Shown here piece after piece: positions 3,213 through 40,600 of a DNA stretch of 64,000 nt (positions are counted from its first letter, which is position 1; every line of letters starts with the position of its first letter). The translations under genes were made by a program, and so were the position numbers. The notes beneath the pieces are model-generated. The model saw only the letters and a program-made list of their open reading frames with translations. It ran no database searches and had not been told where the DNA came from. Source of the stretch: Streptomyces yatensis (lineage in GTDB: Bacteria > Actinomycetota > Actinomycetes > Streptomycetales > Streptomycetaceae); the NCBI RefSeq assembly GCF_018069625.1, contig NZ_CP072941.1, forward strand, positions 682,001 through 746,000, in the 5' to 3' direction.

Positions 3213-4097
3213 TCAGGTGAGCCGGTCGGCCAGGAACGGCAGCAGGACATCGGCCACCTCCTCCGGCACCTCCTCGGCGAGGTCGTGTCCGGCCTGGAAG
3301 ACATGGCCGGTGACGTCATGGGCGAGCAGCCGCATCTGGGTCTCGTTCCGCTCGCCGATGAACGCGTCGCCGCCGAGCGCCAGCACGGGGATGTCCAGCA
3401 TCGTGCGCGCCGCTTCCCGGTTCTGGTCGGCGTCCACGAGCATCGCCCGGTAGATCGCCAGCATCGAGCGGATACCGCCGGGCATGGAGTAGCAGCGCAC
3501 ATACTCGTCGATCGCCTCGGCGGTGGCGGTGTCGGGGTAGCTGCGCTCGTCCTTGAGCATGTAGGTGATGAGTTCGCGCTCATGCCCGGCGATCAGCATC
3601 TCGGGTACGTCCGGCTGGAAATAGAAGCCCAGATGCCACAGGAACATCCCGCCCGAGACATTCTCGTGGGTCAGGGCGGTGTGGTCCTCGAAGCCGAAGC
3701 CGGGCAACAGCGCCTCGGCGAACACCAGGGCCTCGACGTGCTCACGGTGCCGGGCGGCGAGCTGGTAGGCGACCACCGCTCCCCAGTCCTCCCCCATGGC
3801 GGTGTAGGACTCATGCCCGAGGTGGGCCATGAGCGCGGCGATGTCGTCGCTCATGGTGGCGCAGTCGAATCCGTCCGCGGGACGGGCCGAGTCGCCCAGA
3901 CCACGGAGGTCCGGCACCACGACGGTGTGCCGTGCCGTCAGCTTCGGGACCAGATGCCGCCAGTGGTAGCCGGTCTTGGGCACTCCGTGCAGCAGTACCA
4001 CCACCGGGCCGGAGCCGGCCGTTCGGTAATGGAGCTTGGTGCCGTTGACGGCGGCGCGGCCGGTGCGGACGGGGTCTCCACGATGGTCGAAAAGCAT
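3213..4097 (-). CDS. Alpha/beta hydrolase, epoxide hydrolase/haloalkane dehalogenase-like
   Basis: A 294-residue single-domain alpha/beta hydrolase. The start is supported by GGAGGG five bases upstream of the ATG. Motifs in order: the oxyanion-hole loop LLHGVPKTGYHWRHL, then DLRGLGDSARP, then a nucleophile elbow MGEDWGAVVAYQLAAR, where Asp replaces Ser. This is the signature of the epoxide hydrolase/dehalogenase branch. A cap region of Trp/Phe/Tyr-rich sequence follows, and a C-terminal AGHDLAEEVPEEV places the catalytic His near residue 275. The predicted reaction is Asp-attack hydrolysis of an epoxide or C-halogen bond; substrate unknown. It follows the tetR-like gene on the same strand with its own promoter. 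A role in the polyketide pathway is not supported by position or chemistry. Confidence 0.8.
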   Translation of the reverse strand: MLFDHRGDPVRTGRAAVNGTKLHYRTAGSGPVVVLLHGVPKTGYHWRHLVPKLTARHTVVVPDLRGLGDSARPADGFDCATMSDDIAALMAHLGHESYTAMGEDWGAVVAYQLAARHREHVEALVFAEALLPGFGFEDHTALTHENVSGGMFLWHLGFYFQPDVPEMLIAGHERELITYMLKDERSYPDTATAEAIDEYVRCYSMPGGIRSMLAIYRAMLVDADQNREAARTMLDIPVLALGGDAFIGERNETQMRLLAHDVTGHVFQAGHDLAEEVPEEVADVLLPFLADRLT

Positions 4098-4115
4098 GAG
4101 CCCTCCATGGTTCGG

Positions 4116-4147
4116 GACTGATTAGTCTTGAATTAGGGCAAACACAA
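4116..4147 (-). promoter_or_regulatory. Candidate promoter and operator of the alpha/beta hydrolase
   Basis: On the minus strand TTGTGT (complement of 4142-4147) and TAATCA (complement of 4119-4124) are separated by 17 bp. The imperfect dyad GACTGATTAGTC at 4116-4127 overlaps the -10 box. The 7-mer GACTGAT recurs in the tetR-like promoter, so the TetR-family protein may repress both genes (inference). Confidence 0.5.
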
Positions 4148-4169
4148 GACACCCAGAGATATGGGTGTC
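4148..4169 (-). terminator. Hairpin terminator after the tetR-like gene
   Basis: GACACCCA at 4148-4155 pairs with TGGGTGTC at 4162-4169 over a 6-base loop. On the minus strand it is followed at once by TTGTGTTTG, a T-rich tail. It lies 33 bp beyond the tetR-like stop and abuts the hydrolase promoter. Confidence 0.65.
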
Positions 4170-4201
4170 CCACGCGTCGGTACGGTCGCGGATCGCCGCC
4201 G

Positions 4202-4810
4202 TCAGTCGGTGACGGCGGCCGCCGGGGAGGTCAGCATCGCCATGACCGTGTCGATCGTGGTGGTGATGCGGTCGCGCTGGCCCTCGCCCGCGCACGACAG
4301 CACCTTCAGGCCACTGTTGAGCGAGGCCAGCATGGTCGCCGCCGAACTCGGATCGACGCCGGGCGCCAGCTCGCCCTGCGCACGCGCCCTCAGCAGCGCG
4401 CCGTACAGCGCGGTCTCGAGGCGGCTTCGGTTGCCCTCCAGCCGCCGCGAGATCTCGGGGTCGGAATCCCCGTGCTCCACCGTGGCGTTGACCGCGAAGC
4501 AGCCCTGGGGCGTGCCCGGTTTCGGGTCTGCCGCGCTGGTCTCCAGCAGATCCCGGACGGCGTCCAGGGCGGACGCACGGGATGCCAGGATGTCGGCCGG
4601 GCTCGGCGCCGCGGCGCCGGAGAGAAAGCGGTCGAGCGCGGCCAGATACAGTCCGCGCTTGGACCCGAAGGTCCCGTACAGACTGGCCCGCGCGATCCCC
4701 AGCCCGTCCACCAGGTCGCTGGTGGACGTCCCCTCGTAGCCATTGCGCCAGAACAGCCGCATCGCGGCGTCCAGCGCGACCTCGGGGTCGAATTCCTTCC
4801 TCCGTGCCAT
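4202..4810 (-). CDS. TetR/AcrR-family transcriptional regulator
   Basis: A 202-residue protein. The N-terminal HTH is clear: FDPEVALDAAMRLFWRNGYE, then TSTSDLVDGLGIARASLYGTFGSKRGLYLAAL, the standard TetR order with the recognition helix ending LYGTFGSK. The C-terminal ligand-binding half contains PQGCFAVNATVE near residue 105, a pattern of the C-terminal 'TetR_C'-type regulators that carry a possible redox or ligand-binding Cys. There is no ribosome-binding site before the ATG, and a promoter is placed for leaderless transcription. It lies 155 bp downstream of the polyketide locus and just upstream of the hydrolase gene, which is its likeliest target. Confidence 0.88.
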   Translation of the reverse strand: MARRKEFDPEVALDAAMRLFWRNGYEGTSTSDLVDGLGIARASLYGTFGSKRGLYLAALDRFLSGAAAPSPADILASRASALDAVRDLLETSAADPKPGTPQGCFAVNATVEHGDSDPEISRRLEGNRSRLETALYGALLRARAQGELAPGVDPSSAATMLASLNSGLKVLSCAGEGQRDRITTTIDTVMAMLTSPAAAVTD

Positions 4811-4816
4811 ACCGGC

Positions 4817-4845
4817 ACACTAACCTTTCGAGATCGATCAGTCAA
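4817..4845 (-). promoter_or_regulatory. Leaderless promoter of the tetR-like gene with operator-like half-site
   Basis: The complement of 4840-4845 is TTGACT and the complement of 4817-4822 is TAGTGT, spaced 17 bp. Only six bases separate the -10 box from the ATG at 4810, so the transcript should begin at or next to the start codon. The minus strand GACTGATCGATC (4832-4843) overlaps the -35 box and shares GACTGAT with the hydrolase promoter, consistent with autorepression. Confidence 0.6.
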
Positions 4846-4886
4846 TTTGGAGGCGAGGCGGCGCCACGGACGACGGCCGCCGGCTG

Positions 4887-4908
4887 GGCGCTGCCCGAGG
4901 GCAGCGCC
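4887..4908 (-). terminator. Hairpin downstream of the acyltransferase gene
   Basis: GGCGCTGCC at 4887-4895 pairs with GGCAGCGCC at 4900-4908 around a 4-base loop. It lies about 58 bp beyond the stop of the last gene of the polyketide locus, in the correct place to end that transcript before the tetR-like gene. Confidence 0.55.
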
Positions 4909-4965
4909 TCCATCAGACGGCGGACGACGATCCGGGGCCGGCCGCGGCCGCGGGCGGAACGGCGG

Positions 4966-6000
4966 TCACCGCCGCGCCCGGCGAGCACTCCTCTGACGGA
5001 CGCGCGGGCGCATCGCCTTGCGGGCGTCGATGGCCAGGACCTCGAAGTTCTCCCCGGTGCTGTTCACCCGGCCGAAGAGGTTGTCCGGACCCGAGATGCA
5101 GACCTTGGTGATGCCCTGCCCCCGCATCGTCTCCACCATGTCCGGCCAGCGGATCGGGCAGTTGAAGGTGTCGAGCAGCATGGTGCGCACCCCCTCCGCA
5201 TCCGTCAGCAGCGCGCCGTTCTGGTCGGAGACCACCGGAATCTTGGGGTCGGCCAGCTGGAAGCCGCCGAAGACCTCTTCCTCCGCCTTGCGGCGCAGGT
5301 CGCCGAACGAGGGGGCGTGGACGGGCGGCCACATCGTGTACATGTTGTAGCCGCCGAGGTCGCCGATCCGCTTCTTGAACCGGTCGAGCACGGGCTCGCG
5401 CAGGGACACGAGGTAGAAGCCCCGGTCGATGTGGCCGGAGACGTCGTGCCACTCCCCCTCGTCGTCCAGCTCGTCCAGCGCCTTGCGCAGGCTCTCCTCG
5501 GGGGTGTGGATCACACAGTGGGTGACCGCCTCGCGGTGCTCCCGCGCGAAGTACTCCTCCTCGCAGCGGGCCAGATCGGCGGTGAGCCGCACGGTCTCCT
5601 CGAAGGGCAGCGACCCCGCGTAGGTGACCGCGGCCCGCTGGCCGAAGCTCGGCCCGGCGCACAGCTCGGGCTTCTCGCCCAGCGTTTCCTCGGCCCAGTC
5701 GGCGAGGGAGAGACAGACGGTCAGGAAGGCGATCTGGGTGTGGGCGGCGTACTGCCCCTCCTCGTCGCCGTCCGACTGGCGGTACCGGTCGAAGACGGAG
5801 TACCCCACCACCTCGTCGGCGATCGCGAGCCGACGCCGGGCATGGGGGTTGGTCAGCAGGAACTCGCCCACGTCGGTGAAGCGGAAGGGCCCCATCCCGG
5901 GGAAGACGAACGCCGTGCGGCCCGGCTGTGACTCCGTTGCCTGCGACTCGGTGGCCTGGGGCTCTGGGGTCCGGGACTCTGTCGCCTGTGGCTCTGTCAT
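4966..6000 (-). CDS. FabD-like acyltransferase, probably starter acyl-CoA:ACP transferase
   Basis: A 344-residue free-standing acyltransferase of the malonyl-CoA:ACP transacylase fold. It opens with AFVFPGMGPFRF (cf. FPGQG). The nucleophile elbow is GPSFGQ near residue 117, where the family norm is GHSxGE. The catalytic His block VHAPSF lies near residue 225 and a final ISGPDN segment matches the end of AT domains. Both changes flanking the serine argue against an ordinary malonyl substrate. Its ATG overlaps the stop of the ligase gene (ATGA at 5997-6000), so the two are translationally coupled. The PKS-E loading ACP has no AT of its own. The simplest role is moving the acid activated by the ligase onto that ACP; in guanidino-polyketide pathways this is 4-guanidinobutyrate. 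The first 25 residues are an odd Gln/Ala/Thr/Glu/Ser repeat (PQATES, SQATES) of no known role. Confidence 0.75.
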   Translation of the reverse strand: MTEPQATESRTPEPQATESQATESQPGRTAFVFPGMGPFRFTDVGEFLLTNPHARRRLAIADEVVGYSVFDRYRQSDGDEEGQYAAHTQIAFLTVCLSLADWAEETLGEKPELCAGPSFGQRAAVTYAGSLPFEETVRLTADLARCEEEYFAREHREAVTHCVIHTPEESLRKALDELDDEGEWHDVSGHIDRGFYLVSLREPVLDRFKKRIGDLGGYNMYTMWPPVHAPSFGDLRRKAEEEVFGGFQLADPKIPVVSDQNGALLTDAEGVRTMLLDTFNCPIRWPDMVETMRGQGITKVCISGPDNLFGRVNSTGENFEVLAIDARKAMRPRVRQRSARRARR

Positions 6001-7433
6001 GCGTTCGCTCCGGGTGCCAGATCGAGAGCCAGCTGCTCGAGTTGTCGCTTGTCGGGCTTGCCGTTGCGGTTCAGGGGGAACCGCTCCAGGACGTGAATGC
6101 GGTTGGGGTGCTCGAAGGCGGGCAGCAGGGAGCCGATCGGCTCCCGCCAGAACCGCGACTCCCGCTGCTGCTCGTCCTCCACGAAGAAGACCAGCTGGCA
6201 ACCGCGCTGCTCGTCGGGGACGGGCACGACCTTGACGAGACAGCCGCCCGCGGCCAGCTTGTGCTCGATGATCTCGGGGTAGAGCGTATGGCCGTTGCGG
6301 TGCACCGCGGACTTCCGGCCGAGGACGAAGAGGTTGTCCCCGCCGTCGAGATAGCCGAAGTCGCCGGTGGGGTACCAGTCGGTCTTGGCCGGGTCGACGG
6401 GGGCCACCGTGCCGTCGTCCGCCAGGTAACCCTCCATCAGATCGGGCGAGTGGACCTGGATCTCCCCGACCTCGCCCGAGGGGAGGGCCGCGCCCTCGTC
6501 GTCCACGATCCGCAGCTTCAGGCCCTGGACGGCCCGCCCGCAGGCCACGACGTTGTCCTCGGTCGCGAAGGCCACGTTTCCGGCCTCGGTGCTGCCGTAG
6601 CTGTCCAGCAGGGGCAGCCCGAACCTCTTGACGTAGTCGCCGACCAGACCGGGGTCCAGCGGGGCGGCCCCGCTGCAGAACATGCGGACACCCGACAGCT
6701 CGTCCCCCAGGGCGGGCTTACGGCCGATCATGTTGAGCATGCTGCGGTAGCTGGCCGGGGTGGCGTCGACCACCGTCGCCCCGCAGGTGCCCGCCATGGT
6801 CATCGCCCGGTCCAGCCGCCGGTAGGGCGCGATGACCAGCGAGCACTTGACCAGCCAGGCGATGAGCACCATGGACAGCCCGTACTGGTGGGAGAAGGGC
6901 AGCAGCGGCAGCAGGACGTCGTCGGAGCGGTGGCCCACCTGCTCGGCGTTACGCTGAAGGTTCTTCAGGAACTTCGCCCCGGTCTTGACGACGCCCTTGG
7001 GCTCCCCGGTGGACCCGGAGGACCACATGATCAGGCCGTCGGGCAGCTCGCACCAGGTGTCGAAGGACAGCCGCCGCTCGGCGGGCGACTGCTCCACGGC
7101 CGCCACGAGCAGTTCGTAGACGGTGACCCGGGCCGGCCCGCTCTCGGGCATCGGGGTGTCGTCGTCCACCACGCATATCTTGACGCCGGCCCGGTCACAG
7201 ATGCGCTGTGTCGCCTCCGCCCGCTCCTGGTGGTCGACCATGACGATCGACGCGCCGACGTGCATCAGGGCGAGGAGGGCCCCCACGTAACCGGCGGAGT
7301 TGCCCGCCTTCAGCATGACCCGGGTGCCGTCGCTGATGCCACGCTCGCGCAGCGCGTCGGCGATGCCCAGGGCCCGCTGCTCGAACTCGGGAAGCGTGTG
7401 CACCGCTTCCGTCGTAAAGAGCTTTGCGGTCAT
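5997..7433 (-). CDS. Acyl-CoA ligase (ANL superfamily), probable starter-unit activator
   Basis: A 478-residue adenylate-forming enzyme. Motifs in order: SSGSTGEPKGV (ATP P-loop, near residue 160), LLPFSHQYGLS, YGSTEAG (near 295), TGDFGYLDGGDNLFVLGR (near 380) and the C-terminal LNRNGKPDKRQLEQL with the catalytic Lys. The usual Asp in the hinge motif GRxxD is absent (GRKSAVHRNGHTLYP). An in-frame TGA lies directly upstream of the ATG at 7433, fixing the start; the ribosome-binding site is weak (AAGAAAGG, rather distant). No carrier-protein domain is attached. The partner is the acyltransferase gene it overlaps. The probable reaction is ATP + acid + CoA to acyl-CoA, feeding the PKS-E loading ACP. 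4-Guanidinobutyrate is the inferred substrate, from the polyketide pattern rather than from specificity residues. Direct loading of an ACP without CoA remains possible. Confidence 0.78.
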   Translation of the reverse strand: MTAKLFTTEAVHTLPEFEQRALGIADALRERGISDGTRVMLKAGNSAGYVGALLALMHVGASIVMVDHQERAEATQRICDRAGVKICVVDDDTPMPESGPARVTVYELLVAAVEQSPAERRLSFDTWCELPDGLIMWSSGSTGEPKGVVKTGAKFLKNLQRNAEQVGHRSDDVLLPLLPFSHQYGLSMVLIAWLVKCSLVIAPYRRLDRAMTMAGTCGATVVDATPASYRSMLNMIGRKPALGDELSGVRMFCSGAAPLDPGLVGDYVKRFGLPLLDSYGSTEAGNVAFATEDNVVACGRAVQGLKLRIVDDEGAALPSGEVGEIQVHSPDLMEGYLADDGTVAPVDPAKTDWYPTGDFGYLDGGDNLFVLGRKSAVHRNGHTLYPEIIEHKLAAGGCLVKVVPVPDEQRGCQLVFFVEDEQQRESRFWREPIGSLLPAFEHPNRIHVLERFPLNRNGKPDKRQLEQLALDLAPGANA

Positions 7434-14579: not shown

Positions 14580-17500
14580 TTAGAGGTCGGCCACCCAGTC
14601 CTCGACGGCCCGGGCGGTGGTGTCCGCGTAGTTCTCCATCATGGTGAAGTGATTTCCGGGCACGTCGATGACGGTGTCGGCGGGCCAGTCGGCCTGCCAT
14701 GTCTCCGCCGGCGCGTTCGGGTCGGCCGACACCTCCGACGCACGAAGGTGGAGGCTGGGAACCGAGATCTCCGGCGGCTTCCACCCCTCCATCAGATGCG
14801 CGTACCAGCCCATGGCGGACATCCGGACGCCCTCCATGGAGACGACCTCCTCCCGCTCGTACATTTCGTCCAGCCAGGCGTCCGCGACTCCCCCGCCGAG
14901 CCTGGTGGTGTACGGAAGGTAGGTGTCCATCAGGACGACTCCCGCGGCCGGTGTGCCCTGGCTCTCGAGAGCGGCGGCCACCGAGTGGGCGAGCATTCCT
15001 CCGGCCGAGGAGCCGCACAGGACGATCGGGGCGCCCTCGGCGTACTCGGCGACGACCCGCGCCTGCAGGCGGAACAGCGCGTCCAGGTTGGCCGGAAGGC
15101 TCTCGCCCTCGACCGACCCCACGGTGTGAAGGGCCGCCACGTCCCGGTTGCCGCGGAACGGTGCGGCGAACCGCGCGTACTGGTGGACGCCGCCCAGCGC
15201 GACATGGGAGGCGAAGCACATCAGCCGGGGACGCCCGGGACCCCGGGAGAGCCGCGCGGGCCTGATGTTCCCCTCGAAGTCGGCCGGGTCCTCGAAGGTC
15301 GGGCGGAGCTTTGCCGCGCTCACCAGCAGCTCCATGCCGATGCTGGACTTGCCCTGCTGGGCCGCCAGCCGGTAGAGGGAGCCGAGGGTGTCGGGCGCGC
15401 TCCCCTGGGGTGCCGGGGAAGCGGGCTCGGCCACGGGCGCGGCCGGTACCGCGGCCGGAGCGGTCTGCTCCTGGATCTGGCCGACGGCGGGGGCGGACGC
15501 GATCTCGGCCGCGAGCCGGGGGCGCAGATGGGCCACCATCTCGCCCGGGCTCGGGTAGTCGAAGACGACCGTGGTGTTCAGCCTGAGGCCGGTGAGGGCC
15601 GCCAGCTGATTACGGAATTCGACCGCCGTGAGGGAGTTGAAGCCCATCTCCATGAACTCATGGCCGGTGTCGATGTCGTTGGGTGATGCGAACCCGAGCA
15701 CCGCGGCGGCGACGGTACGCACCATTTCCAGAAGAGCCTCGTCCCGCTCGGACTCCGACAGCCCCGCCAGCCGTTGCCGCAGCTGGGTGGGCTGGTCCAC
15801 CTCGGACTCCGCCGCCCGGGCCGAACGCCGGACAGGGGCTTCCGGGACGACGGGTCGGAACACGGCGGGCAGCGCGGCGCCCTGCGCGCGCAGCGCGGCC
15901 ACGTCCAGCCGGGCGGGAATCACCACGGCCGTGCCGGAGGTGACACCGGCGTCGAAGAGCTCCAGCCCCTCGTCGGAGGTGAGCGGCGCCAGACCGGTGC
16001 GCGCCACGTCGTTCCACGTCGCGTCCAGCCGCCGGACCTCGTAGAGATCGCTCAGCAACGGGCTGGGCCGGCCCGCGGTGAACGCGGGAACAAACCGTTC
16101 CCAGTCCACGTTCACGACCGTCACCACACCGTCGTCATCCGCTATGACGCGCTCCAGACCGGCCATCGCCGGCTGTGGCGCCAGCCGGGGCAGCCCACGC
16201 CGCTCCAGGTGCTCGCCCTGGTCGTCCCCGGCCGCCATGCCGATCTCGGCCCAGGGGCCCCAGACCACGGAGGTGCCGGCGAGTCCCCGCCCGCGGCGGT
16301 CCTCCACCAGCGCGTCCAGATAAGCGTTGGCGGAACTGTAGGCGGACAGGCCGCCACTGCCCCACAGACCGGAGATGGAGGAGAAGACCACGAACGCGTC
16401 GAGCTCCCGGTCGCCCAGCAGCGCGTCCAGGTTGACGGCACCCGCCACCTTGCCCGCCACGAGGGTGGCGGCATCGGCCAGGCCGGTCTCCAGCAGAGGC
16501 GTCCCGCCGGTGGCGCCCGCCACGTGGACGACCCCCGTCAGCGGATACTCCTCCGGCACCGCGTCCAGCACCGCGGCCAGCTGCTCACGGTCGGCCACGT
16601 CGCAGGCCGCCACGGTCACCCGGGCACCCAGCTTCTCCAGCTCCTCGCGCAGTTCGGCCGCGCCCGGCGCCTCAGGGCCCCGGCGGCTGGTCAGCACCAG
16701 GTGCTCGGCGCCCTTGCCCACCAGCCACCGGGCCACCTCACCGCCGAGCCCGCCGGTGCCACCGGTGACCAGCACCGTGCCGCGCGGGCGCCACGGCGTC
16801 CCCTGTGCGACGGGCGGAGCCGAGCGCACCAGACGGCGTACGAAGACACCGGAGCCGCGCACCGCGACCTGGTCCTCGCCGCCCTCGACGGACAGCACAC
16901 CGGCCAGCCGCGCCGCACCGCGCTCGTCCAGCGACGCGGGCAGATCGACCACACCGCCCCACAGCGGCGGCAGCTCCAGCGCGGCCACCCGGCCCAGCGC
17001 CGACACCATCGCCTGTATCGGGCTGGTGAGCCGCTCCGAACCGTCCACCGAGACGGCCCCTCGCGTAGCGCTCCACAGCCGGGCCGGAATCCTCGCCTCG
17101 ACCATGGCCCGCACCAGCACCAGGCTCAGCGCGTAGCCGTTCGGCATGGCCGGGTGCCCCGGGCAGGGCTCCTCGTCCAGGGCCAGCAGTGAGAGCACAC
17201 CGCCCAGTTCGGGGGCCTGTCCGGCCACCTCGCGCAGCCGCTCGGCGAGCACGCTCGCATCGAGATCCCGCTCGTCCAGCACGACCGAGACCACCTGCGC
17301 GCCGTGCCGCTCGAGCCCGGCGACGACCTCCGAGACCAGCTCGTCCCCGGCGCGGGACGCCGGAACCACCACCGGCCAGGTCCCCGACAGCGACCTCCGG
17401 GACGGGTCCGGGACCGGCTTCCACGACACCTGGTAGCGCCAGTTGTCGATCATCGCCTGCTCGGACCGTGCCCCGTCGGCGTCCTGGGCCCACCGGCCCC

Positions 17501-20500
17501 AGGCCAACGAGACGCCCGGCAGTCCCCGGGCGCGGCGCCACGACGCGAGGCCGTCCAGGAACACGTTGGCCGCGGCGTAGTCGCTCTGTCCGGTCGCGCC
17601 GAGCAGACCCGCGGTCGCGGAGAACAGCACGAACGCCGACAGGTCCATGCCCGCGGTCAGCTCGTGCAGGTTCCAGGCCGCGTCCACCTTCGTCCGCAGC
17701 ATCGCGCTCGCCCGCTCGCGTGTCAGCGAGGCGAACAGCCCGTCGTCGAGCACCTCGTCCGCATGGACCACGGCGCTCAGCGCGAATTCCTCGGGCAGCG
17801 CGGCCAGCACCGCGGCAAGCGCGTCACGGTCCGCGGCGTTGCACGTGGTGACCACCACCGTGGCGCCCGCGGCCTCCAGTTCGGCCCGCAGTTCGGCCGC
17901 GCCGTCCGTCTCCGCATCACGGCGGGACAGCAGCACCAGCTTCGTGACACCGTGCCGGGCCACCAGATGCCGGGCCACCAGACCGCCCCGGGCGCTCGTG
18001 CCCTCGGTCACCAGCACGGCGCCGGAACCGAAGACCTCCGACTCGGGAGCGTCACCCGTGGGCAGGGCGCGGGCCAGCCGTGGCACGCGGACCTCGCCCG
18101 AACGCACCACCACCTGCTCCTCACGAGTGGCCAGCAGCCCCCCGAGAAGTCCCACCGCACGCTCGACATCATCCGTGTCGACCAGCACCACCCGTCCGGG
18201 GTGCTCGGACTGCGCCGACCGCACCAGACCCCATGCGGCCGCACCCGACAGGTCCCCCACACCGTCGCCGGTGTCGACGGCGCCCTTGGTCAGCACCACC
18301 AGCGGGACGTCCGCGAACCGGTCGTCCGCCACCCACGACTGAACGGTCTCCAGCACCTCGGCGACCCGGGTGTGGACCTCGTCCACCACATCGGAGCCAC
18401 TCGACGCGACCGGCAGTACCACCATGCCGGGCATGCTCGTGCCCGCCGCCACGGTGTCGCTGAGCGCCTCGGTGTCCGGGTACACATCGGCGGGGTAGAA
18501 GCCCGCCGCCTCCAGAGCGCCGCCCACGCCGAGGCAGTCGTCGACCAGCACCGCCCACCAGCCGGGTGCCACGCCCTCGGCGGGCTGGGCACCGTCCGCC
18601 GTCCACTCCATGCGGAACAGCGCTTCACCGGCGGTCCGGCTCATGCTCTGCAACGCGGCGGCCTGCATGGGCCGGAAGAGGAGGGAGTCGACGGTGGCCA
18701 CCGGGCGGCCCGAGGAGTCGGCCATGGCCAGCGACACGGCCTGCCGTCCGTCCGGGACGACCCGGACCCGCAGCGCCTGGGCACCGACGGCTTCCAGGGA
18801 GAAGCCCCGCCACGAGAACGGCATCAGATTGCCCGCGCTCGGTGCGTCGTCGCCGCCGCGCAGCGCGTTGTTCGCGCCGATCGCCTGGAGGGCGCCGTCG
18901 AACAGGGCCGGGTGCAGACCGAAGTACTTCGCCACGCCGAGCTGGTCCTCGGGCAGTTCGACGTCGGCGAACACCGCGTCGCCGCGCTTCCAGGCGCGCC
19001 GCAGGCCCCGGAAAGCGGGACCGTAGTACAGCCCGTGCTCCTCGGCGTGCTCGTAGCCGCCGGAGACGTCGACGGGCTTGGCGCCGGAGGGCGGCCACTT
19101 CGCGAAGTCGAAGGAGGCCGCGGGCGCGGGCGGGGTGAGCGCTCCGTGAGCGTGCTGCACCCACGGCTGCTCGAGGTCGGCGCTGTCGTCGGCCGGCTCC
19201 AGTCGCGAGTAGATGCTGACGTCGCGGCGGCCGGAGGCGTCGGCCTCCCCCACCTCGACCTGGATCTGCACCCCTCCGCGCTCGGGCATCGCCAGCGGCG
19301 CCACCAGCACCAGCTCATCGACCCGGCCGCAGCCGACCTGGTCCCCCGCCTGGGCGGCCATCTCCGCGAAGGCCGTTCCGGGCACCAGCGCCACGCCTTG
19401 CACCGCGTGGTCGGCGAGCCAGGCGTGAGTGGCGATCGACAGCCGCCCGCTGAGCAGCACTCCGCCGCCGCCGGCCAGCGAGGTCGCGGCGCTCAGCATG
19501 GGGTGCGCCACCGCGCCGAGGCCCACCGATCCCACGTCGCCGCCGGCCGCCATCCCGTCCAGCCAATAGCGCTGACGCTGGAAGGCGTAGGTCGGCAGAT
19601 CGACCCGGCGGGCGCCGTGTCCCGCGAACACCTTGGGCCAGTCGACACCGACGCCACTGACGTGGGCCTCGGCGGCGGAGGTCAGGAACCGCTCGGTTCC
19701 GCCCTCGTCGCGCCGCAGGGTGCCCATGACCACGGCCCGCGCCTCGGCGGCCTCCACCGTCTGCTGCACCGGCAGGGTCAGCACCGGATGCGGGCTCACC
19801 TCGATGAACACGCTGTGGCCCTCAGCGAGCAGGGTGCGCGTCGTGGACTCCAGCTCGACGGTCTGCCGCAGGTTGCGGAACCAGTACTCCGCGTCCAGAC
19901 CCGCCGTGTTCATCACCTCGCCGGAGACGGTCGAGTAGAACGGCACCTCGGAGGAACGCGGCGCGATGCCCGCCAGGACCTTCAGCAGCTCCTCGTGGAT
20001 CGCCTCCACATGGGCGGAGTGCGAGGCGTAGTCCACCGGAACCCGGCGGACCCGCACCTTCTCACCCTCCAGCTGCGCGACCATCTCGTCCAGCGCACCC
20101 GGGTCACCCGAGACCACGACGGAACCGGGGCCGTTGACCGCCGCGACCGAGATCGCGCCGTCCCAGGGGGCGATGCGCTCCTTGACCTCATCCGCCGGCA
20201 GTCCGACCGACACCATGCCACCACGACCGGCCAGACCGGCGGCGATCGCCTGCGACCGCAACGCCACCACCTTCGCGGCGTCCTCCAGCGAGAGCGCACC
20301 CGCGACACAGGCCGCCGCGATCTCACCCTGGCTGTGGCCCATCACGGCATCCGGCTCCACGCCCACCGAACGCCACAGCTTCGCCAGCGACACCATCACG
20401 GCGAACAACGCCGGCTGGACGACGTCCACCCGGTCATAGCCGGGGGCGCCCTCGGCACCGCGCAGCACCTCGGTCAGCGACCAGTCCACATGAGCGGACA

Positions 20501-22334
20501 GGGCCGTCTCACACTCGCCGATCGCCTCCGCGAACACCGGCGAGGACTCCAGCAGCCCCACCGCCATGCCCATCCACTGCGCACCCTGACCGGGGAAGAC
20601 GAAGGCGGTCCTGCGTCCCTTCGCGGCCTGTCCCCTGACCACGCCCGGGGTCACCTCGCCCTCGGCCACGGCGTGCAGGCCGCGCAGCAGGCTCTCGCGG
20701 TCCTCGCCGATCACCGCCGCGCGGTGCTCGAACGCCGACCGGGACGCCGCCAGGGAGTAGCCGATGTCCGCCACCGACGCCGTCGCGAGCTCGTCGTCCT
20801 CGGCGGGGCCCTGAGCTGTCAGACGGGCGTACAGCCGCTCGGCCTGCGCCCGCAGCGCGGCCTCGCCCTTGCCCGAGAGCAGCCAGGGCACGACGGCGGA
20901 GGCGACCGGGTGGGGAGCCTCGGCCCCGGATCCGTCCGGCTCCGGCTCCTCGGCCTCGGTGGCCTGCTCGATGATGGTGTGCGCGTTGGTCCCGCTGATC
21001 GCGAAGGAGGAGATCGCCGCCCGGCGGGGCCGGTCCGTCTCCGGCCAGGGCCGGGCCTCGGTCAGCAGCTCCACGGCCCCCGCCGACCAGTCCACATGCG
21101 GGGTCGGCTCGTCCACGTGCAGCGTCTTGGGCAGGATGCCGTGCCGCATGGCCATCACCATCTTGATGATCCCCGCGACACCCGCCGCCGCCTGCGCGTG
21201 GCCGATGTTGGACTTGATGGATCCCAGCCACAGCGGCCGGTCCGCCGGCCGGTCCTGGCCGTAGGACGCGATCAGCGCCTGCGCCTCGATCGGGTCGCCG
21301 AGCGAGGTGCCGGTGCCGTGCGCCTCCACGATGTCGACATCGTCCGGGGTGAGTCCCGCGTTGTCGAGCGCCTGACGGATCACCCTGCGCTGCGAGGGGC
21401 CGTTGGGGGCCGTCAGACCGTTGCTGGCCCCGTCCTGGTTCACCGCGGAACCGCGCACCACGGCCAGCACGGGGTGGCCGTGGCGGCGGGCGTCGGACAG
21501 CCGCTCCACGAGCAGTACGCCGACGCCCTCGGACCAGTTGGTGCCGTCCGCGGCCGCCGCGAAGGGCTTGCAGCGGCCGTCGGTCGCGAGTCCCCGCTGA
21601 CGGCTGAACTCGGTGAACGTTCCGGGCCCGGCCATCACGGTGATGCCGCCGGCCAGGGCGAAGTCGCACTCGCCCTGGCGCAGCGCCTGCGCGGCCAGGT
21701 GCAGCGTCACCAGGGACGACGAGCACGCCGTGTCCACCGTCACCGCGGGGCCCTCGAGACCGAGGACGTAGGAGATCCGGCCGGAGGTGACGGCGGGCGT
21801 CTGCCCCGTCATCAGATGGCCTTCGACCTCTTCGGCCTCGATCGGGCCGGCCGCGCCGTATCCCTGGAACGCGGCGCCCATGAACACGCCGCCGGTGGTG
21901 CCCTTGACGGACAGCGGGTCGATGCCGGCCCGCTCCAGGACCTCCCAGGACGCCTCCAGCAGCAGCCGCTGCTGGGGGTCCATCGCCAGCGCCTCACGCG
22001 GGGAGATCCCGAAGAACACCGGGTCGAACATGGCGGCGTCGTGCAGGAACCCGCCCTCGTTCACATAGCTCGTGCCCTGACTGTCGGGGTCCGGGTTGTA
22101 CACCTCCTCGTGCCAGCCGCGGTCCTTCGGAAACGGCGAGAGCCCGTCGGCGCCGTCGGCGACCATGCGCCACAGGTCCTCAGGAGAGCTGACCCCGCCG
22201 GGGAAGCGGCAGCTCATCGCGACGATCGCGATGGGCTCCCGGTTCTTCTCCTCCACCTCCCGAAGGCGCAGACGGGTGCGGTGCAGATCGGTCGTCACCT
22301 TGTTGAGGTAGTCGCGGAGCTTGGTCTCGCTCAC
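14580..22334 (-). CDS. PKS-D: terminal module with tandem KR and thioesterase
   Basis: A 2584-residue protein. Approximate domains: N-terminal docking helix 1-30 ([13 protein letters not shown]), KS 30-458 (DTACSSS), AT 573-924 (GHSQGE and YASH, methylmalonyl-CoA), DH 935-1218 ([20 protein letters not shown]), degenerate KR 1231-1628, second complete KR 1628-2107 ([15 protein letters not shown], Tyr, Asn; A-type), the leftover C-terminal strand of the first KR 2107-2150, ACP 2181-2271 (GFNSL, Asn in place of Asp), a Pro/Ala linker, and TE 2341-2584. The GTG start at 22334 has only a weak ribosome-binding site, 50 bp after PKS-C. It adds the last unit (C1-C2, methyl at C2), sets C3, and releases the chain as a macrolactone. 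If the DH works, the product is a 2-methyl-2-enoyl ester, making a 2,4-diene together with the PKS-C alkene. Confidence 0.9.
14583..15310 (-). other. Thioesterase domain of PKS-D
   Basis: A type I PKS thioesterase beginning after the Pro/Ala-rich linker (RLMCFASH). The nucleophile motif is GSSAGG, where most PKS TEs have GHSxG. The acid is the Asp of LMDTYLP and the His lies in GNHFTM near the C-terminus. It is expected to cyclise and release the chain. It is the only thioesterase in the window. Confidence 0.88.
15500..22242 (-). other. Module D1: KS-AT(methylmalonyl)-DH-KR(degenerate)-KR(A)-ACP
   Basis: Last extension module. KS Cys around 21730, AT GHSQGE at 20319-20344, DH motif at 19373-19425, degenerate KR catalytic part 17450-18035, second KR 16011-17450, ACP serine around 15643. 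Two KR domains in one module are very unusual. The second supplies the only plausible reductase activity. Confidence 0.85.
16011..17450 (-). other. Inserted A-type ketoreductase cassette in module D1
   Basis: About 1.44 kb encodes a full structural plus catalytic KR, from [11 protein letters not shown] to RRLDATW. It lies between the catalytic part of a degenerate KR (ending near ARSEQAM) and that KR's own C-terminal segment ([21 protein letters not shown]). The insert begins exactly at the start of the KR structural subdomain and lacks the upstream dimerisation element seen in the other KR-only modules. It shares long identical stretches with the KR of PKS-B module 1. Confidence 0.8.
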
Positions 22335-37688: not shown

Positions 37689-40600
37689 GCGCCGGCGACG
37701 GCGGAGCCACCGGACCCGGCGGTGAGTGCCGGGGACGATGCCCCGAGCACCTCGGTGCGCAGATGCGCCGCGAGCGTCGAGGCGCTGGGGTAGTCGAAGA
37801 CCAGCGTGGCGGGAAGGCCGAGACCGGTCTCGGCGGCCAGCCGGTTGCGCAGGTCGACCGCGGTCAGCGAGTCGAAGCCCAGATCGCGGAAGGCCCGGTT
37901 CGGCTCGACCATCTCCGCGGAGGCGTAGCCCAGTACGGAGGCGGCGTGCTTGCGCACCAGATCGAGCAGCGCCCGGTCCCGCTCGCCCTCGGTGAGCGGC
38001 TTCAGCCGCTCACGCAGCTGCGCCCCGGCGGCGTCGGAGCTCTCGCCGTCGCCCCCCTTGGCCTCCAGCCGCTGGACCTCGTCGAGGTCGCTCAGGAACG
38101 GGCTGGGCCGGACCGCGGTGAACGAGGGGGCGAACCGCTCCCAGTCCACGTCCACGACCGTCACCACACCGTCGTCACCGGCCACCGCGCGTTCCAGAGC
38201 GGCGATCGCCAACTCGGGTGCCATCGCGGGCAGTCCGCGCCGCGCCAGCTGCTCCCCCGCGTCGTCCCGGGTCGCCATGCCGCCCTCGGCCCACGGGCCC
38301 CAGGAGACGGCGGTGCCGGCGAGGCCCCGCGCACGGCGCTGCTCCACCAGCGCGTCCAGGAAGGCGTTTCCGGAGCCGTAGACGCCCTGGCTGCCGCCGC
38401 CCCAGATACCGGAGATGGACGAGAAGACCACGAACGCGTCGAGCTCACGGTCGCCGAGCAGCTCATCCAGGTTGACGGCGCCCGCCACCTTGCCCGACAC
38501 CACCCGCGCCGCGTCCGCGAGCTCCGTCTCCACCAGGGAGGACGCGATCGTGACACCCGCCGCGTGCACCACCCCGGTCAGCGGCAGGTGCTCGGGCACG
38601 GCGTCCAGGACGGCGGCGAGCGCGGCGCGGTCCGCCGCGTCGCACGCGGCCACCGTCACCTCGGCGCCCATGCCCTCCAGCTCCGCCTTCAACTCGGCGG
38701 CGCCTTGGGCCGCAAGACCGCGGCGGCTGGTCAGCACCAGGTGCTCGGCACCGCTACGGACCAGCCAGCGGGCCACCTGGCCGCCGAGCCCGCCCGTGCC
38801 ACCGGTCACCAGCACCGTGCCGCGCGCCTGCCACGAGGTCCCCTCGTCGGCGGCCGCGGCCGAGCGCACCAGACGGCGTACGAAGGCACCGGAGCCGCGC
38901 ACCGCGACCTGGTCCTCGCCGCCCTCGACGGACAGCACACCGGCCAGCCGCGCCGCACCGCGCTCGTCCAGCGACGCGGGCAGATCCACCAGACCGCCCC
39001 ACAGCGGTGCCAGCTCCAGCCCGGCCACCCGGCCCAGCGCCCAGACCATCGCCTGCGTCGGGCTGGTGAGCCGGTCCGAACGCCCCACCGACACCGCGCC
39101 GCGCGTACCGCACCACAGCCGGGCCGGGAACTCGGCCCCGACCATGGCCCGCACCAGCACCAGGGTCAGCGCGTAGCCGCCCGACAGCGCCGGGTACCCC
39201 GGGCAGGGCTCCTCGTCCAGGGCCAGCAGCGACAGCACCCCACCCAGCTCGGGTGCGTCGGCGGCCACCTCACGCAGCCGCTCCGCGAGCACGTCCGCGT
39301 CGAGGTCGCGCTCGTCCACCAGGATCGAGACCACATCCGCGCCGTGCCGCTCGAGCCCGGCGACGACCTCCGAGACCAGCTCGTCCCCGGCGCGGGACGC
39401 CGGAACGACCACGGGCCACGTCCCCGACAGCGAGCCGTCGGCGATCTCGGCAAGCGGCTTCCACGACACCCGATAGCGCCAGCCGTCGATCGTGGACTGG
39501 TCACGGTTGTTGCGGTGGTACGCGGACAGGGCGGGCAGCACCGCGCTCAGCGGCGCCTCGCTGTCGACCGCCAATGTCCCGGCCAGCGACTCCAGGTCCT
39601 GGCGCTCCACCACCTCCCAGAACCGGGCGTCGACGGAGCCGGTGGCCTCGGCCGCGCTTCCGCCGGGCGGCAGGCCGAAGCCGTCGAGCCAGTAGCGTTC
39701 GCGCTGGAAGACGTAGGTCGGCAGCTCGACCCGGCGGCCTCCGCGGCCCTCCAGCGTGGTGGCCCAGTCGACCTTGGTGCCGCGCGCGAACACCTCGGCG
39801 GCGGAGGTCAGGAACCGCTCCAGGCCACCCTCGTCGCGCCGCAGCGTGCCGACGACCACGGCCTGGGCCTCGGCGGCCTCCACGGTCTGCTGCACCGGCA
39901 GGGTCAGCACGGGGTGCGGGCTCACCTCGATGAAGGTGGCGTGTCCCTTGCCGAGCAGGGTGCGGGTGGTGGCCTCCAGCTCGACGGTCTGCCGCAGGTT
40001 GCGGTACCAGTACTCGGCGTCCAGACCGACCGTGTCCACCAGCTCGCCGGTCACCGTCGAGTAGAACGGCACCTCGGAGGAGCGCGGCGCGATGTCCGCC
40101 AGGACCTTCAGCAGCTCCTCGCGGATCGCCTCCACGTGGGCGGAGTGCGAGGCGTAGTCCACCGGAACGCGGCGAACACGGATCTCCTCGCCCTCCAGCT
40201 GCGCCACCATCTCGTCCAGCGCACCCGGGTCACCCGAGACCACGACGGATCCCGGGCCGTTGACCGCGGCCACCGAGATCGCACCGTCCCAGGCGGCGAT
40301 CCGCTCCTTGGCCTCGTCCGCGGACAGTCCGACCGACACCATGCCACCACGGCCCGCAAGGCCCGCGGCGATGGCCAGCGACCGCAACGCCACCACCTTG
40401 GCGGCGTCCTCCAGGGAGAGCGCGCCCGCGACGCAGGCCGCGGCGATCTCACCCTGGCTGTGGCCCATCACCGCGTCGGGCCGCACGCCCACCGAACGCC
40501 ACAGCTTGGCCAGCGACACCATCACCGCGAACAGCACCGGCTGGACCACGTCCACCCGGTCGAAACCGGGAGCGCCCTCGGCGCCACGCAGGACCTCGGT

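What the first reader, a model, noticed from the sequence alone, without database searches (positions are those of the whole stretch)
15500..18640. Nested double ketoreductase in the chain-terminating module
The sequence shows a degenerate KR (18640-17450), an entire A-type KR cassette (17450-16011), and only then the C-terminal segment ([21 protein letters not shown]) that normally closes a KR of the first type. The second KR is therefore inserted within the first, not simply appended. It looks like a natural replacement of a dead KR by insertion of a live one, leaving the module readable. I know of no standard PKS module with this arrangement.
Basis: seen in the sequence. Interest (0 to 1): 0.88.

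Follow-up and report, generated by a model that had tools for sequence, protein, structure and literature searches.

The report
Ketoreductase nested inside dead ketoreductase
In the last station of a bacterial antibiotic assembly line, a complete and apparently working reducing enzyme sits inside a loop of an older, apparently disabled one, and related bacteria seem to preserve the form without the insertion and a form that lost it again.

Summary
The chain-terminating PKS protein (window 14580-22334, minus strand, 2584 aa) reads KS-AT-DH-KR1(N part)-[complete KR2]-KR1(C tail)-ACP-TE. KR2 (17462-16007) is a full-length A-type KR with intact catalytic residues. It lies in the lid loop of KR1, whose cofactor sites and catalytic Ser are lost.

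It is not an assembly artefact: four protein clusters (59 member sequences, representatives read) and five other genomes carry it. Azalomycin-type modules have an intact, uninterrupted KR there. The likely donor is the A-type KR of an upstream module of the same assembly line (38039-39496, 83% DNA identity). A third group lacks KR2, has a non-elongating-type KS (His to Phe, 9 of 9 rows), and its deepest member (DSM 40750) keeps KR2's last residues as a scar. Insertion, then excision, is the likeliest order.

Best reading: KR1 is a silent scaffold and KR2 reduces. The A-type alcohol is not dehydrated, so azalomycin's 2-ene becomes the 3-hydroxyl of a niphimycin-type macrolide. The predicted mass (1141.72) fits niphimycin only if no N-methyl is present.

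Modules with two KRs are mentioned in print; my searches found no description of a nested one.

The parts
14580..22334 (-). terminal PKS gene: docking-KS-AT-DH-KR1[KR2]KR1 tail-ACP-TE, 2584 aa
20970..22238 (-). KS, catalytic Cys-His-His motifs intact (EAHGTGT)
19650..20603 (-). AT, methylmalonyl motif VDYASH
18648..19505 (-). DH, HxxxGxxxxP intact
17463..18623 (-). KR1 N-terminal part (KRs1 + most of KRc1), B-type LDD, inactivated by motif
17982..18008 (-). KR1 NADPH loop changed to TEGTSARGG (azalomycin type: TGGxGxLGG)
17754..17765 (-). KR1 HADE in place of HA[AT]G
17616..17618 (-). KR1 catalytic Ser to Ala (residue 1573)
16007..17462 (-). inserted complete A-type KR2, in the KR1 lid (83% DNA identity to donor KR)
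16326..16379 (-). KR2 catalytic Ser/Tyr/Asn and diagnostic Trp (residues 1986-2003), intact
15783..16004 (-). KR1 C-terminal tail resumed after KR2 ([18 protein letters not shown]...VVIPARLD); may start up to three residues earlier
15525..15722 (-). ACP
14595..15221 (-). thioesterase
38039..39496 (-). likely donor: A-type KR of the first module of the 3205-aa PKS protein

Best explanation
An A-type KR from an upstream module of the same assembly line was copied into the lid loop of the terminal module's B-type KR (insertion shown by homology and empty sites; donor by tree and DNA identity). KR1 now lacks cofactor and, in part, catalytic residues and acts as a folded scaffold that holds KR2 and joins DH to ACP (inferred). 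KR2 reduces the beta-ketone to the A-type (L) alcohol (inferred from motifs). The DH motif is intact but such domains normally take the opposite alcohol, so no water is lost, and the module gives a 2-methyl-3-hydroxy end where azalomycin F has a 2-methyl-2-ene (inferred). In one descendant group KR2 was later excised and the KS lost its catalytic His (excision inferred from a scar).
For: Two KRs in one module. Junctions and empty sites. Donor: all six KR2 rows in the tree and five donor-type KR rows form one clade, 100/99 (65), and DNA identity is 82.9% over 1458 nt. KR1: G1 to E 6 of 6, HAxG to E 6 of 6 nested rows, plus private losses; KR2 intact 6 of 6 at six sites; azalomycin-type KR intact 9 of 9 at eight sites. 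Insert equals a whole KR structure. Clusters of the same length that cover the junction: four, 59 members, representatives read. DSM 40750: clean in-frame 1413-nt absence with KR2's tail kept; it is sister to the other eight state-B rows (80/93) in a B clade of 97/96 (105). Colinear formula: azalomycin-type modules give C56H95N3O17 = azalomycin F4a; the window genome's modules with a terminal OH give 1141.72, with 2-ene 1123.71, with 3-keto 1139.71; niphimycin is reported as 1141.7 (PMC5082578, passage) and m/z 1142 (PMC10483227, passage).
Against: KR1 is not freely decaying: dN/dS of KRc1 in state C is 0.28, KRc2 0.35, state-A KRc 0.20. Lys of KR1 remains in 6 of 6, Tyr and Asn in 5 of 6 C rows, so some activity cannot be excluded by motif alone. 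The structure model does not settle whether the KR1 tail packs on KR1. The formula match needs no N-methyl, whereas niphimycin, as recalled and as a cited title suggests, carries one; then one CH2 is unexplained. It also assumes azalomycin's saturation pattern. The 3-hydroxyl of niphimycin is recalled, not read. C is not a clade in the concatenated tree, single-domain trees disagree, and gene conversion between KRs and KSs blurs the order of events (P0011).
Confidence: 0.75

Rival explanations
1. KR1 died first (no insert) and KR2 later rescued the module; the state-B modules are that ancestral dead form, not products of excision.
For: B and C share HADE (15 of 15) and mostly TEG/TDG in KR1; state B shows perfect empty sites.
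Against: DSM 40750 keeps KR2-derived residues VQRLDTAW at the site and is sister to the other B rows, though that inner split is only 80/93. All 9 B rows have KS His to Phe, which C lacks.
Confidence: 0.25
2. KR2 and the intact DH together make a cis (Z) 2-ene, not an alcohol.
For: The DH His motif is intact in 5 of 6 C rows. PMC11228615 (passages) cites fostriecin KR2, in the A1-type clade, which makes a cis double bond with a DH.
Against: The predicted mass would be 1123.71 against the reported 1141.7, subject to the N-methyl question. P0011 lost the DH His but keeps KR2.
Confidence: 0.1
3. Both KRs act, or KR1 keeps a non-reducing role such as epimerisation (C2-like) while KR2 reduces.
For: KR1 keeps Tyr, Lys, Asn in most rows and is under purifying selection.
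Against: The first NADPH glycine and HAxG are mutated in 6 of 6 C rows; the window lost the catalytic Ser and P0011 the Tyr.
Confidence: 0.12
4. Assembly artefact from repeated PKS sequence.
For: PKS genes are repetitive and KR2 resembles a cluster paralogue.
Against: The same junctions occur in other assemblies, including single-contig genome G193, and the junction region of G055 and G096 is only 82-84% identical to the window's protein.
Confidence: 0.01

Closest known systems
Azalomycin F terminal module (Streptomyces sp. 211726, P0130)
   Same: Same KS-AT-DH-KR-ACP-TE order and start sequence; 73% identity over residues 2100-2584
   Different: One intact, uninterrupted B-type KR; no KR2
Niphimycin PKS (Streptomyces sp. 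IMB7-145; S. niphimycinicus 4503)
   Same: L042 from S. niphimycinicus is 98% identical in the ACP-TE part with the same nested KRs; IMB7-145 protein P0092 has the same AT motifs as the window genome's own 3376-aa protein P0089
   Different: The terminal module of IMB7-145 itself was not seen; its paper (Hu 2018) was not held
A-type PKS KR, amphotericin AmphB KR (3mjv, 5xwv)
   Different: KR2 is held inside another KR
ER inserted between KRs and KRc in reducing modules (as in 8g7w)
   Same: A domain inserted in a KR is a normal PKS arrangement (legend in PMC11228615; general knowledge)
   Different: There the insertion point is between the subdomains and the guest is an ER; here it is the catalytic lid and the guest is a KR

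Membership tests
cis-AT type I modular PKS, releasing module | KS with Cys-His-His motifs, AT, ACP, TE in one protein | tested here: met
A-type PKS ketoreductase (KR2) | NADPH motif, K-S-Y-N, Trp 8 residues before Tyr, no LDD | tested here: met
   fold
Active B-type PKS ketoreductase (KR1) | LDD motif | tested here: met
Active B-type PKS ketoreductase (KR1) | intact NADPH loop, HAxG and catalytic Ser | tested here: not met
Niphimycin biosynthetic cluster | one extra propionate module in the side chain compared with azalomycin | tested here: met
   extra ATmm-DH-ER-KR module; text in PMC5082578 (passage)
Niphimycin biosynthetic cluster | product formula/mass | tested here: inconclusive
   1141.72 predicted without N-methyl; N-methyl state unresolved
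Niphimycin biosynthetic cluster | same terminal module in the producer IMB7-145 | not tested
   that protein was not listed under its own name
Non-elongating KS0 module (state-B relatives only) | loss of the HGTGT His with Cys kept (hallmark recalled) | tested here: met
   EAFGTGT with DTACSSS in 9 of 9 state-B rows; not in the window

The most novel reading that the evidence does not exclude
A PKS changed its product by nesting a live KR in the lid of a resident KR, kept the resident as a selected scaffold, and in one lineage expelled the guest again together with shutting down the KS. The lid would then be a natural insertion port for KR exchange that bypasses an intact DH by stereochemistry.
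Probability: 0.5. Interest if true: 0.75.

Novelty: new variant of a known kind. Interest (0 to 1): 0.62.

Why it matters
KR exchange is a way to engineer polyketide stereocentres, and choosing boundaries that do not disturb the module is a stated difficulty (PMC12636015, abstract start and passages). Here evolution seems to have done it by insertion, in the lid, with the old KR left in place, and forms without, with and after the insert survive in living strains. That gives a testable design rule and an example of how a module's outcome could switch from alkene to alcohol without killing the DH.

Tried and rejected
Simple tandem duplication of KR1: rejected, KR2 is far closer to KRs of other modules (76-78% protein identity for the best two) than to KR1 (about 45%).

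Free decay of KR1: not supported; dN/dS similar to KR2. Nei-Gojobori on pairs, small groups (C 5, B 3, A 6 sequences), gene conversion not modelled.

Fold-back of the KR1 tail: not settled. The 927-aa model has mean pLDDT 72.8, pTM 0.56, and is weak at KR1's start and tail; the VIA rows lie on KR2, so the KR1 fold was barely tested. A second model (L041 KR, one sequence) had pLDDT 48 and was not used.

Nested or tandem KRs elsewhere: a motif scan of the 262 proteins held (237, 25 more, slightly different patterns) found two KR motifs without an ACP between only in P0001, P0003, P0004, P0005, P0011, plus P0070 where the 1591-residue gap points to an ACP motif missed by the pattern. These are the listed best hits of three searches (the lists were cut at 120), so this covers a part of the PKS world only.

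Literature: searches for 'two ketoreductase domains', 'tandem ketoreductase', 'two KR domains', 'additional/extra/second/tandem/double/duplicated KR' and an inserted/inactive/second KR combination gave no nested KR in their listings. Searches on azalomycin and niphimycin led to passages in papers, none on this module. One method text (PMC11228615, passages) excludes 'modules with two KR domains' from a data set, so such modules are known. Hu et al. 2018 was not held.

Full report
The window is part of a 10.36-Mb single-contig genome (G000) and holds most of a large PKS cluster read on the minus strand. The terminal protein (14580-22334) is 2584 aa with KS, AT, DH, two KR stretches, ACP and TE. 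Between DH and ACP the order is KR1 from residue 1238, KR2 from about 1625 to 2110, then a tail that reads [21 protein letters not shown]...VVIPARLD.

KR1 looks dead. I compared 24 terminal-module rows: 16 proteins (window included) and 8 loci. Several are near duplicates, and P0126 and L055 are identical in the parts compared. Eight cofactor or catalytic sites are intact in 9 of 9 azalomycin-type rows (state A). In the 6 nested rows (state C) the first NADPH glycine is Glu in 6 of 6 and HAxG is HADE in 6 of 6. Further losses are Ser to Ala in the window, Tyr to Cys and Asn to His in P0011, and a second NADPH glycine to Ser in 3 of 6. KR2 is intact at six sites in 6 of 6. Against simple decay, KR1 is still under purifying selection (KRc1 dN/dS 0.28 in C, 0.48 in B, 0.20 in A; KRc2 0.35).

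Spread. A protein search with the left junction returned four clusters of 2582-2586 aa that cover it fully, P0003, P0004, P0005 and P0011 (26, 4, 19, 10 member sequences at 90% clustering; only the representatives were read). With the right junction the same four lead a list of 34. In 150 genomes of the genus, 3, the window's own included, show one alignment over the whole 631-aa junction region in the listed rows (G000, G055, G096; 8 candidates scored per genome and the list is cut). Among 61 'relatives' 2 have the ACP-TE part at E 1e-120 (G000, G031). Of 295 genomes in another draw, 9 match a 92-aa piece at E 1e-20: five nested (G000, G055, G096, G178, G193), three azalomycin type (G031, G182, G284) and one with a scar (G282). 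G193, G182, G282 and G096 were read, G055, G031. G284 has the contig length of L052, read as state A. G178 was placed by contig number, frame length and alignment only; it is probably the S. niphimycinicus genome of L042. Named nested loci are S. niphimycinicus (L042) and S. violaceusniger NBRC 13459 (L050, broken reading frames in the draft).

Third state. Nine rows (state B) lack KR2, share KR1's HADE (9 of 9), and all have KS EAFGTGT in place of EAHGTGT (9 of 9; 0 of 15 in A and C; one A row, P0129, gave no match to the KS Cys pattern). By established knowledge, loss of this His marks a non-elongating KS. One of them, P0122 of Streptomyces sp. DSM 40750, reads TQQ-VQRLDTAWHDVARTG. Against nested G096 its gene is colinear except for a clean in-frame absence of 1413 nt with a 3-nt overlap, and VQRLDTAW is the end of KR2.

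Order. In a tree from DH, KR1 N part and tail-ACP-TE, without KS and insert, A and B+C are separate at 100/100. B is a clade at 97/96 with P0122 sister to the other eight at 80/93. C is not a clade and branches beside B. Single-domain trees disagree in part: C is one group in DH (99/97), B in KS (100/99); in KR1N both are broken, in AT both are broken, and in tail-ACP-TE B is one group only at 65/8. Gene conversion is a likely cause. I read this as insertion before the B/C split, then one excision. The root on the A branch is an assumption. 'KR1 dead first' remains possible.

Donor. In a tree of 50 KRs from four clusters plus other nested genes, the six KR2 rows group at 100/99 with five A-type KRs: four are the first-module KR of the 3205-aa protein and its counterparts, and one is another G055 module (G055's own KR2 was not in this set because its start did not match my pattern). 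DNA identity to that KR is 82.9% over 1458 nt. P0011's KR2 looks partly overwritten by it.

Product. Counting modules by hand from the motif scans (no single pattern finds all), A_G031 has 19, as stated for azalomycin (PMC5518293, abstract and passages), and its colinear formula with one N-methyl, one malonyl and one hydroxylation is C56H95N3O17, azalomycin F4a ([M+H]+ 1082.6734 in PMC5082578, passage). The window genome's cluster has 20, the extra one an AT(methylmalonyl)-DH-ER-KR module, as expected for niphimycin's extra side-chain propionate. With the terminal module giving 3-OH the formula is C59H103N3O18, 1141.72, without N-methyl; 2-ene 1123.71; 3-keto 1139.71. The assignments of saturation follow azalomycin and are assumptions. 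Niphimycin is reported as 1141.7 and niphimycins A and C as m/z 1142 (PMC10483227, passage). If niphimycin carries an N-methyl, as a cited title suggests, one CH2 is unexplained. The 3-hydroxyl of niphimycin and the DH's preference for the B-type alcohol are recalled knowledge.

Novelty. Insertion of an ER in a KR is normal, and modules with two KRs are mentioned in print (PMC11228615, passages). A KR nested in the lid of another KR, with the empty site and an apparent post-excision scar in relatives, was not found in the searches listed. I rate it a new variant of a known kind.

Noticed in passing
L059-L064 (S. endocoffeicus cluster, G176): State-B cluster: terminal KS0 plus one module fewer in the place of the window genome's 3376-aa protein. 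Relative to a 36-membered ring this predicts 32 members, a size class listed in PMC6864768. Inference only.
   Followed up: partly
L074-L079 (G055 cluster): Nested-KR cluster with 21 KS motifs in the fetched stretch and probably one more module outside it (frame of 3986 aa), more than the window genome's 20; suggests the 40-membered class.
   Followed up: partly
P0011 (S. hygroscopicus): DH catalytic His is Gln (LADQTVQG) while KR2 is intact: dehydration appears dispensable in the nested lineage.
   Followed up: no
P0128-P0132, L046-L048, L051: Azalomycin-type terminal AT is malonyl type (HAFH) in 6 of 9 rows and methylmalonyl type (YASH) in 3 of 9; the AT tree splits into two deep clades, an AT swap in the same module.
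   Followed up: no
P0089, P0092 and relatives, first module AT: AT motif VAIDYASH in P0089, P0092 and seven others of 16 checked, VPVDYASH in the remaining seven; possibly linked to the one-CH2 question.
   Followed up: no
window 3216-7433, minus strand: Alpha/beta hydrolase, VinK-like acyltransferase and AMP-binding enzyme genes next to the ACP-KS-AT-DH-ER-KR-ACP protein, fitting starter-unit supply.
   Followed up: no
L055/P0126: Only state-B KR1 sequence that keeps TGG in the NADPH loop, but with HADE and EFDD in place of LDD.
   Followed up: no
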